A stretch of 36,608 nucleotides of DNA, taken from contig JAFSHA010000127.1 of the NCBI GenBank assembly GCA_017440565.1, positions 1-36,608 on the forward strand, written 5' to 3'. The notes under the pieces are model-generated. The model saw only the letters and a program-made list of their open reading frames with translations. It searched no databases and had not been told where the DNA came from. Below are positions 36,111 to 36,608 of the stretch, one piece after another. This stretch comes from Eggerthellaceae bacterium (lineage in GTDB: Bacteria; Actinomycetota; Coriobacteriia; Coriobacteriales; Eggerthellaceae). Made by a program: the position numbers and the translations under genes. The first letter of the stretch is position 1. The number at the start of each line of letters is the position of its first letter.

Positions 36111-36279
36111 TTGTGTTCAAAAAACGCATCCTTGTAGGCACACAGCCGCCCATCGCGTTCGAAAACGCCAAGTTTACTGGACATTTTTCCTTTGAATGTT
36201 GAATATCTTTCCTCCCATAGGCAGAAACCAACGGTTTGTCATACCGACCTGCCTACAAGGATGCGCTTTTTGAACACAA
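36111..36279. repeat. 169-bp element with 30-bp inverted repeats
   Basis: Arms 36111-36140 and 36250-36279 are reverse complements with a single mismatch; the interior is 109 bp. No transposase or clear target-site duplication is visible. Read outward from the centre, both arms encode AYKDA(F/L)FEH(K/N). The one difference changes a Phe to Leu codon, so the arms may be inverted copies of a coding-like repeat. It could be a MITE or a recombination remnant. Confidence 0.75.
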
Positions 36280-36418
36280 CATCGAAACGCCCCTAAACCA
36301 GAATTGACACGGGCGATCTAGCCCGCTGCCGAAGCGCAGGTCGAACACGGGGTTTTGGCGGGAGGCCCAGGCTCCTATCAGACGCATGTCGATCTTGGTT
36401 TAACACAGCCTCGCATGC

Positions 36419-36510
36419 TTACGCGGGATTCGAGCCACCCTCGATGCTGAATCCCTCGCTGAAGGCGCTCGGGGTGACCACGGTGCCGCCCGATTGCTCG
36501 ACCACGCCTA
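36419..36510 (-). pseudogene. Possible C-terminal gene remnant
   Basis: A minus-strand frame reads GVVEQSGGTVVTPSAF, then SEGFSIEGGSNPA and a TAA at 36419-36421. It has protein-like composition, but upstream it runs into the direct-repeat zone and has no start. The family is not recognised. It could be the tail of a gene cut off by rearrangement, or chance. Confidence 0.3.
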
Positions 36511-36513
36511 TTT

Positions 36514-36571
36514 GGAAAATCCGAATAAATTTGTCGGAAAATCCGAATTTTTCAACTGGGAAAATCCGAAT
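36514..36571. repeat. Three direct repeats GGAAAATCCGAAT
   Basis: Exact 13-bp copies lie at 36514-36526, 36536-36548 and 36559-36571, spaced 22 and 23 bp (about two helical turns). A partial copy GGAAAATC lies at 36591-36598. TACAAT (36577-36582) follows, so the repeats probably form a multi-site operator for a gene just right of the window. Confidence 0.8.
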
Positions 36572-36608
36572 AGATCTACAATATAGCCAAGGAAAATCAG
36601 AAGCGCAT

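What the first reader, a model, noticed from the sequence alone, without database searches (positions are those of the whole stretch)
36514..36598. Phased triple repeat ahead of an off-window promoter
Three exact GGAAAATCCGAAT copies at 22-23 bp spacing, plus a partial fourth across a TACAAT box, form an array in phase with the DNA helix. Such regular spacing implies cooperative binding by a dedicated regulator.
Basis: seen in the sequence. Interest (0 to 1): 0.5.

Follow-up and report, generated by a model that had tools for sequence, protein, structure and literature searches.

The report
Self-addressed repeat array of an ATPase
The three repeats look like the control region of a gene for a DNA-binding ATPase of a very common, untested candidate anti-virus family; most of its relatives that were examined carry their own array with the same spacing but a different word, which suggests that each protein addresses its own promoter.

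Summary
In detail: three exact GGAAAATCCGAAT copies, 22 and 23 bp apart. The fourth near-copy lies downstream of the TACAAT box, not across it. The window is a whole contig (C61) ending at the array. A near-identical copy on contig C41 runs into a gene for an AAA_14+DUF4143 ATPase, which PADLOC's profiles call phage-defence candidate PDC-S01; by that copy the start codon would lie about 45 bp beyond the window.

The array is a family trait. 71 of 76 relatives have a direct-repeat array of 22/23-bp pitch (or its double) upstream, against 2 of 72 downstream regions and 4 of 199 other genes. In a second set, 53 of 55 new relatives had it. The word differs from gene to gene; the pitch follows the protein branch (96 genes at 22-23 bp, 25 at 32-33 bp, one change on the tree). 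It recurs on plasmids of several phyla. The -10 box is helically phased to the array, and the protein has a confidently predicted winged helix.

Best explanation: each ATPase binds its own array and controls its own promoter. Binding is inferred; repression or activation is open. A recognition-helix correlation seen in the first set did not replicate in the second.

The parts
36514..36526 (+). repeat copy 1, GGAAAATCCGAAT
   Evidence: exact match
36536..36548 (+). repeat copy 2, 22 bp after copy 1
   Evidence: exact match
36559..36571 (+). repeat copy 3, 23 bp after copy 2; its unit covers the -35/spacer region of the putative promoter
   Evidence: exact match; position relative to the -10 compared among relatives
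36577..36582 (+). putative -10 box TACAAT
   Evidence: sequence; offset 22 from the start of the last unit, within the main cluster of relatives; no good -35 hexamer
36591..36603 (+). near-copy GGAAAATCAGAAG (2 mismatches), out of the 22/23 register (32 bp after copy 3); also in the C41 copy
36397..36502 (-). copy of the 3' end of a Band_7 (SPFH) gene whose complete form is on contig C41; precedes both arrays, marking a segmental duplication
   Evidence: alignment; Pfam Band_7 for the complete gene L007:4353-5309

Best explanation
The array is the self-operator of a DUF4143/AAA_14 (PDC-S01) ATPase gene. The ATPase's own winged-helix domain binds the 22/23-bp direct repeats, probably as a cooperative head-to-tail oligomer, and controls its own promoter, whose -35 region is covered by the last repeat unit. 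Family members have their own words, so that paralogues in one genome would regulate themselves without cross-talk; the pitch is set by the protein subfamily. Shown: the array, its conservation, pitch and position upstream of this gene family, the divergence of the word, the helical phasing of the -10 box. Inferred: that the protein itself binds, cooperativity, autoregulation. Open: repression (about 55%) or activation (about 45%).
For: Sister copy with the gene. 71 of 76 relatives with an array of lag 22/23/44-46 and score 12 or more upstream, 2 of 72 downstream, 4 of 199 other genes; second set 53 of 55. Pitch follows the protein tree, 96 against 25 genes, one change. Word private to the locus in the window's genome and, for one other word tested, in complete genome G021. 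Model with pLDDT 91.7 whose 214-294 part reads as a winged helix; Foldseek neighbours include DNA-binding AAA+ proteins DnaA and Orc1. Residue 254, second in helix 254-266, best explains word similarity in 68 genes. -10 box phased at about 11 bp, 0 of 500 shuffles as strong.
Against: No binding data. The residue-254 signal rests on few independent changes (about 4 supported contrasts, median p 0.25), is not first in a mutual-information ranking and did not replicate in the second set (rank 105 of 406). 12 of 40 DUF4143 genes of three fully listed genomes show no significant repeats, and 5 of the other 28 have lags outside 20-24, 32-33 and their doubles. Some best cross-matches between paralogous upstream regions (up to 13.5) are as high as the weakest self-scores (12; scored slightly differently). 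The gene itself is not in the window.
Confidence: 0.65

Rival explanations
1. A separate, unlinked regulator binds the arrays and controls these ATPase genes, for instance as part of a defence regulon.
For: The position over the promoter would suit any regulator; a Thermus DUF4143 gene rises 6.6-fold with plasmid DNA in an Argonaute-bearing strain (PMC4406477).
Against: The word differs between paralogues of one genome and between relatives, while the pitch follows the ATPase tree; one shared regulator would keep one word. The arrays are also on plasmids of several phyla.
Confidence: 0.15
2. The array is an iteron-like site for DNA work of the ATPase (nucleation of a filament, partition, or a mobility/recombination site), and promoter control is secondary.
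For: AAA+ neighbours include the initiators DnaA and Orc1/Cdc6; relatives lie on plasmids; the window's copy belongs to a duplicated block.
Against: Arrays lie upstream, not downstream, of the gene (71 of 76 against 2 of 72) and in fixed helical phase with the -10 box, as expected for promoter control. No Pfam Rep domain in P0001.
Confidence: 0.15
3. Chance, simple repeat expansion or an assembly artefact at the contig end.
For: The array lies at a contig end where C61 and C41 share 122 identical bases, typical of an assembly fork.
Against: The same architecture stands inside single-contig genomes and in plasmids of other species; 0 of 50 shuffles of the window give such a triple.
Confidence: 0.02

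Closest known systems
PDC-S01 phage-defence candidate (PADLOC), AAA_14 + DUF4143 ATPases
   Same: P0001 and 12 other scanned members match PDC-S01 profiles. PMC12988326 (passages) describes ATPase fused to a PD-(D/E)XK-superfamily part.
   Different: In the passages and searches seen, no regulatory array is described for the family; [quoted passage not shown]
SARP / SARP-LAL activators (AfsR, PimR): tandem direct repeats upstream of the -10
   Same: ATPase regulators with winged-helix-type DNA binding on tandem direct repeats, 22-nt boxes, cooperative monomers (PMC5930380, abstract and passages).
   Different: SARP units have an 11-bp pitch and mostly control other genes; P0001 has no SARP-type domain in Pfam; here the word is private to each gene.
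MalT-type STAND activators and PhoB boxes (recalled, not from a call)
   Same: Oligomerising regulators on direct repeats near the -35 region.
   Different: Other domain make-up; these serve many promoters with one word, here one promoter each.
Iterons of plasmid Rep proteins (recalled, not from a call)
   Same: Direct repeats of about 17-22 bp bound by a winged-helix protein that can regulate its own gene.
   Different: No Rep domain; many chromosomal paralogues per genome (25 in G021, 29 in G087), two main pitches by subfamily.

Membership tests
DUF4143 ATPases (PF13635 + PF13173) | both domains above Pfam's gathering score | tested here: met
   DUF4143 94.6 bits (cut-off 28.1), AAA_14 39.1 bits (cut-off 27) for P0001, the gene of the sister copy; the window's own gene lies off the contig
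PDC-S01 (PADLOC) | match to the PDC-S01 profiles | tested here: met
   PDLC04790, E 2.2e-55 over residues 8-431
PDC-S01 (PADLOC) | anti-phage activity | not testable with these tools
   no experiment; reported as pending for most PDCs (PMC12988326, passages)
SARP activators | SARP N-terminal DNA-binding/BTAD domains | tested here: not met
   Pfam scan to E 1 gives only DUF4143, AAA_14 and two sub-threshold matches
MalT / LAL regulators | C-terminal LuxR-type HTH | tested here: not met
   no such Pfam match
Iteron replicons | Rep protein | tested here: not met
   P0001 has no Pfam Rep domain
Iteron replicons | origin function of the repeats | not tested
   needs experiment
Self-operator (autoregulatory site) | gene product binds the site | tested here: inconclusive
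   indirect: residue 254 correlation in set 1, not replicated in set 2

The most novel reading that the evidence does not exclude
PDC-S01/DUF4143 ATPases, among the commonest candidate defence genes of prokaryotes, are sequence-specific DNA-binding machines that oligomerise on a private direct-repeat array at their own promoter; the subunit spacing (22-23 or 32-33 bp) is fixed by the protein subfamily and the word drifts gene by gene, giving many orthogonal self-addressed switches in one genome.
Probability: 0.55. Interest if true: 0.75.

Novelty: new variant of a known kind. Interest (0 to 1): 0.63.

Why it matters
PDC-S01 ATPases number tens of thousands (29,494 detected in Bacteria and 9,986 in Archaea; PMC12988326, passages) and I found no established function for them. 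A private, pitch-coded array in front of most members examined in two branches gives a handle: it predicts a specific DNA target for each protein, readable from its own promoter, so that binding, oligomerisation and control become directly testable. It would also offer a large natural set of orthogonal operator-regulator pairs, and it bears on whether these genes are inducible defences or self-limiting selfish genes.

Tried and rejected
Tried: genome-wide scatter of the word (none). The exact double word is found in 1 of 138 family genomes, the window's own, which looked like a private oddity until upstream regions were compared by period instead of word. Opposite orientation of the Bifidobacterium arrays (ATTCGGATTTTGG) was dropped for one orientation with an A- or T-run after CGGA. 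Protein-word covariation: residue 254 first in set 1, not in set 2; kept as suggestive only. -35 test for the sign of control: 0 of 27 against 6 of 40 control promoters with score 3 or more, Fisher p 0.07: undecided. Empty site of the C41 block in same-genus genome G001: no match, uninformative. IMG/VR scan with A2: 16 pattern matches, none a relative. Sequence search of solved structures: one irrelevant match, E 0.044. Foldseek against viral models: generic AAA+ and clamp-loader matches. NCBIfam and PHROGs: none.

Literature (open-access library): DUF4143 in 1 paper (one section of it read); COG1373 in 7 papers (listing only); two searches found no paper; one search listed 5 unrelated ones; ranked unrelated papers on top (571 and 1,440 papers held the terms; 20 and 8 listed); PDC-S01 in 3 papers (passages of two seen); one search listed 10. 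'No report of the arrays found' means no more than these searches.

Rows dropped before counts: L076 of 77 (no upstream). L053, L055, L057 left out for having no 22/23 lag (with 220 bp and lags to 70, files L053 under 22-23); 68 genes with 3 or more units and over 350 aa; L065, L123, L131 left out by hand. L091, L102, L120 left out as the same genes as L146, L121, L154; L083 and L138 too short for the tree; 13 near-copies left out; 23 near-copies and 2 short upstreams of 80 left out; the 80 were chosen by me from the near-full-length matches listed. L237, L244, L255, L258 of 55 left out. In one search loci on the minus strand were read on the wrong strand; redone.

Full report
WHAT IS THERE. 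Three exact copies of GGAAAATCCGAAT stand at 36514, 36536 and 36559, 22 and 23 bp apart. No other 13-mer of the window occurs three times within 60 bp, and none of 50 shuffles has one. The window is the complete contig C61 of a 2.41-Mb, 172-contig assembly and ends 5 bp after the near-copy.

THE SECOND COPY TELLS WHAT FOLLOWS. The exact word occurs six times in the assembly: three in the window, three in contig C41. The two arrays are identical, with the same spacings and the same near-copy, and the last 122 bases of the window are found exactly in C41. On C41 the array is followed, 82 bp after the third repeat, by AAGGAGG and an ATG that opens a 433-aa protein, P0001: AAA_14 plus DUF4143. By this copy the gene of the window would start at about 36653. 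A translated search finds this protein once at 100%, with two more relatives at 48 and 45%, so a second full gene copy beyond the window is likely but not seen. Both arrays are preceded by a copy of the 3' end of a Band_7 gene whose complete form is on C41: the block is a segmental duplication.

IT IS A FAMILY TRAIT. 77 relatives of P0001 were fetched, nearly all from Coriobacteriia and Bifidobacteriaceae by their record titles. The best self-match lag of the 200 bp upstream is 22 or 23 in 57 of 76 and 44-46 in 16 of 76; in shuffles 22/23 is best in 4.7%. With a score of 12 or more it is 71 of 76 upstream against 2 of 72 downstream and 4 of 199 upstream regions of other genes in the same loci. 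Of the 30 controls with score 12 or more I looked at ten: two are DUF4143 genes by Pfam (L046 4478-5839, lag 34; L076 1743-3056, lag 33), a third (L046 1346-2536, lag 46) reads like one but was not scanned, and one is an AAA_16/nSTAND-like ATPase with a 19-bp array. A second set, 80 relatives picked from the near-full-length matches, gave 55 new genes after 23 near-copies and 2 short ends were dropped: 53 of 55 have the 22-23 pitch, one lag 55, one none.

WORD FREE, PITCH FIXED. The words differ from gene to gene. Within one genome no paralogous array repeats another's word: best cross-matches are 13.5 (19 genes of G021), 9 (5 of G067) and 8.5 (5 of G000), against self-scores of 12-45, 14-37 and 14-34; the low end overlaps, and the two scores weigh mismatches differently. 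One other word was looked up in the single-contig genome G021: four copies 33 bp apart in its own array, plus two singletons with one mismatch. All listed DUF4143 genes of three genomes were examined (25, 8 and 7): 28 of 40 have significant upstream repeats (18, 5 and 5). Over 161 genes, 96 have pitch 22-23, 25 have 32-33, 12 another lag (one, L161 at 66, may be 2 x 33) and 28 none; on the FastTree tree of 159 proteins the two main pitches are separated by one change. The tree has long branches, and with all four labels it needs 24 changes (shuffled mean 58.5). Genes without repeats cluster in part, for example in the MYIxREIE subfamily. Sampling is uneven: 76 of the 161 are P0001 relatives, 27 are best matches of family genomes, 40 are from the three full genomes, and 18 plasmid or phage-labelled genes were chosen by me for spread out of 64 listed hits.

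ACROSS PHYLA. 14 of these 18 show the pitch of their branch: Bacteroidota (L163, L167, L169), Fusobacteriota (L162), Chlamydiota (L164), Pseudomonadota (L165, L173, L174), Chlorobiota (L170), Bacillota (L172), Collinsella plasmids (L168, L176) and two phage-labelled contigs (L175, L178). Four do not: Thermus L171 (lag 22, not significant), Vibrio L166 (not significant), Vescimonas L177 (42, with 33 second) and Parabacteroides L161 (66).

HOW IT PROBABLY WORKS. AlphaFold2 of the Ellagibacter relative L060 (71% identical) has mean pLDDT 91.7. Helices 214-226, 234-242 and 254-266 with strands 270-273 and 291-294 I read as a winged helix; the strands beyond 346 would hold the nuclease-like part (the labels are my reading, and no nuclease motif was tested). 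Foldseek's best PDB matches are the archaeal ATPases 2qen and 2fna (TM 0.40-0.52), then RuvB, DnaA and Orc1 with DNA at low TM. In 68 genes aligned in register, word similarity beyond overall identity is best predicted by residue 254 of P0001 (r 0.346; next 0.223), which is the second residue of helix 254-266 in the model. Arg254 goes with T, other residues with another base, after CGGA in 64 of 68. This points to the protein's own winged helix but is not secure: only 4 contrasts lie on supported branches (median p 0.25), a mutual-information ranking did not put 254 first, and in the second set the column ranks 105 of 406 (that comparison was phase-free and over more distant genes). The -10 boxes, where a good one exists (27 of 59 genes after dropping near-copies), lie 21-26 (14), 33-35 (5), 44-46 (7) or 59 (1) bp from the start of the last unit, periodic at about 11 bp, with 0 of 500 shuffles as strong; the 44-46 group may hide one more degenerate unit. 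So the array belongs to the promoter, and its last unit covers the -35/spacer region. A -35 consensus is not above shuffle in these 27 (none with score 3 or more), against 6 of 40 controls (p 0.07). That suits a repressor on the core promoter and equally an activator that replaces the -35, as in operators of the SARP type (PMC5930380, passages). I do not decide.

WHAT IT IS CALLED. P0001 matches PADLOC's PDC-S01, as do the other 12 proteins scanned, from both pitch classes and others. PMC12988326 (passages) calls PDC-S01 the fourth most common defence across prokaryotes, found by guilt-by-embedding, with validation pending for most PDCs. I found no report of the arrays in the searches named under Tried and rejected. 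In Thermus a DUF4143 gene (TT_P0211) rises 6.6-fold with plasmid DNA in an Argonaute-bearing strain (PMC4406477, section 7), so one member is at least regulated.

VERDICT. The anatomy is well supported; the binder is inferred; the sign of control is unknown.

Noticed in passing
window 36111-36140 / 36250-36279: A 30-nt inverted repeat (97% complementary, 109 nt apart) beside the array; pieces of it match many places of the assembly (65 matches to the query that holds it and its surroundings, among them C31, C107, C115, C132). It looks like a dispersed repeat family of the genome.
   Followed up: partly
window 36397-36502; L007 5170-5340 and 7170-7310: The 3' end of a Band_7 (SPFH) gene is copied in front of both arrays, so the array block has been duplicated together with a gene fragment.
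   Followed up: partly
L035:5354-6463 (-): An AAA_16/nSTAND-like ATPase gene without DUF4143 also has a direct-repeat array upstream, pitch 19 bp; self-arrays may reach beyond this family.
   Followed up: no
G087, contig C41, about 74507-80614: Four DUF4143 matches lie in tandem on one strand within about 6 kb, in a genome with 29 matches in all.
   Followed up: no
L127, L150, L158, L139, L140, L153, L126, L177: Other DUF4143 genes have significant repeats at lags 38, 21, 21, 41, 40, 41, 42, 42; several may be further pitch classes.
   Followed up: no
L175, L178 (fecal contigs labelled Bacteriophage sp., UNVERIFIED): Relatives of P0001 with 23-bp arrays lie on contigs deposited as phage; whether they are phage was not checked.
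   Followed up: no
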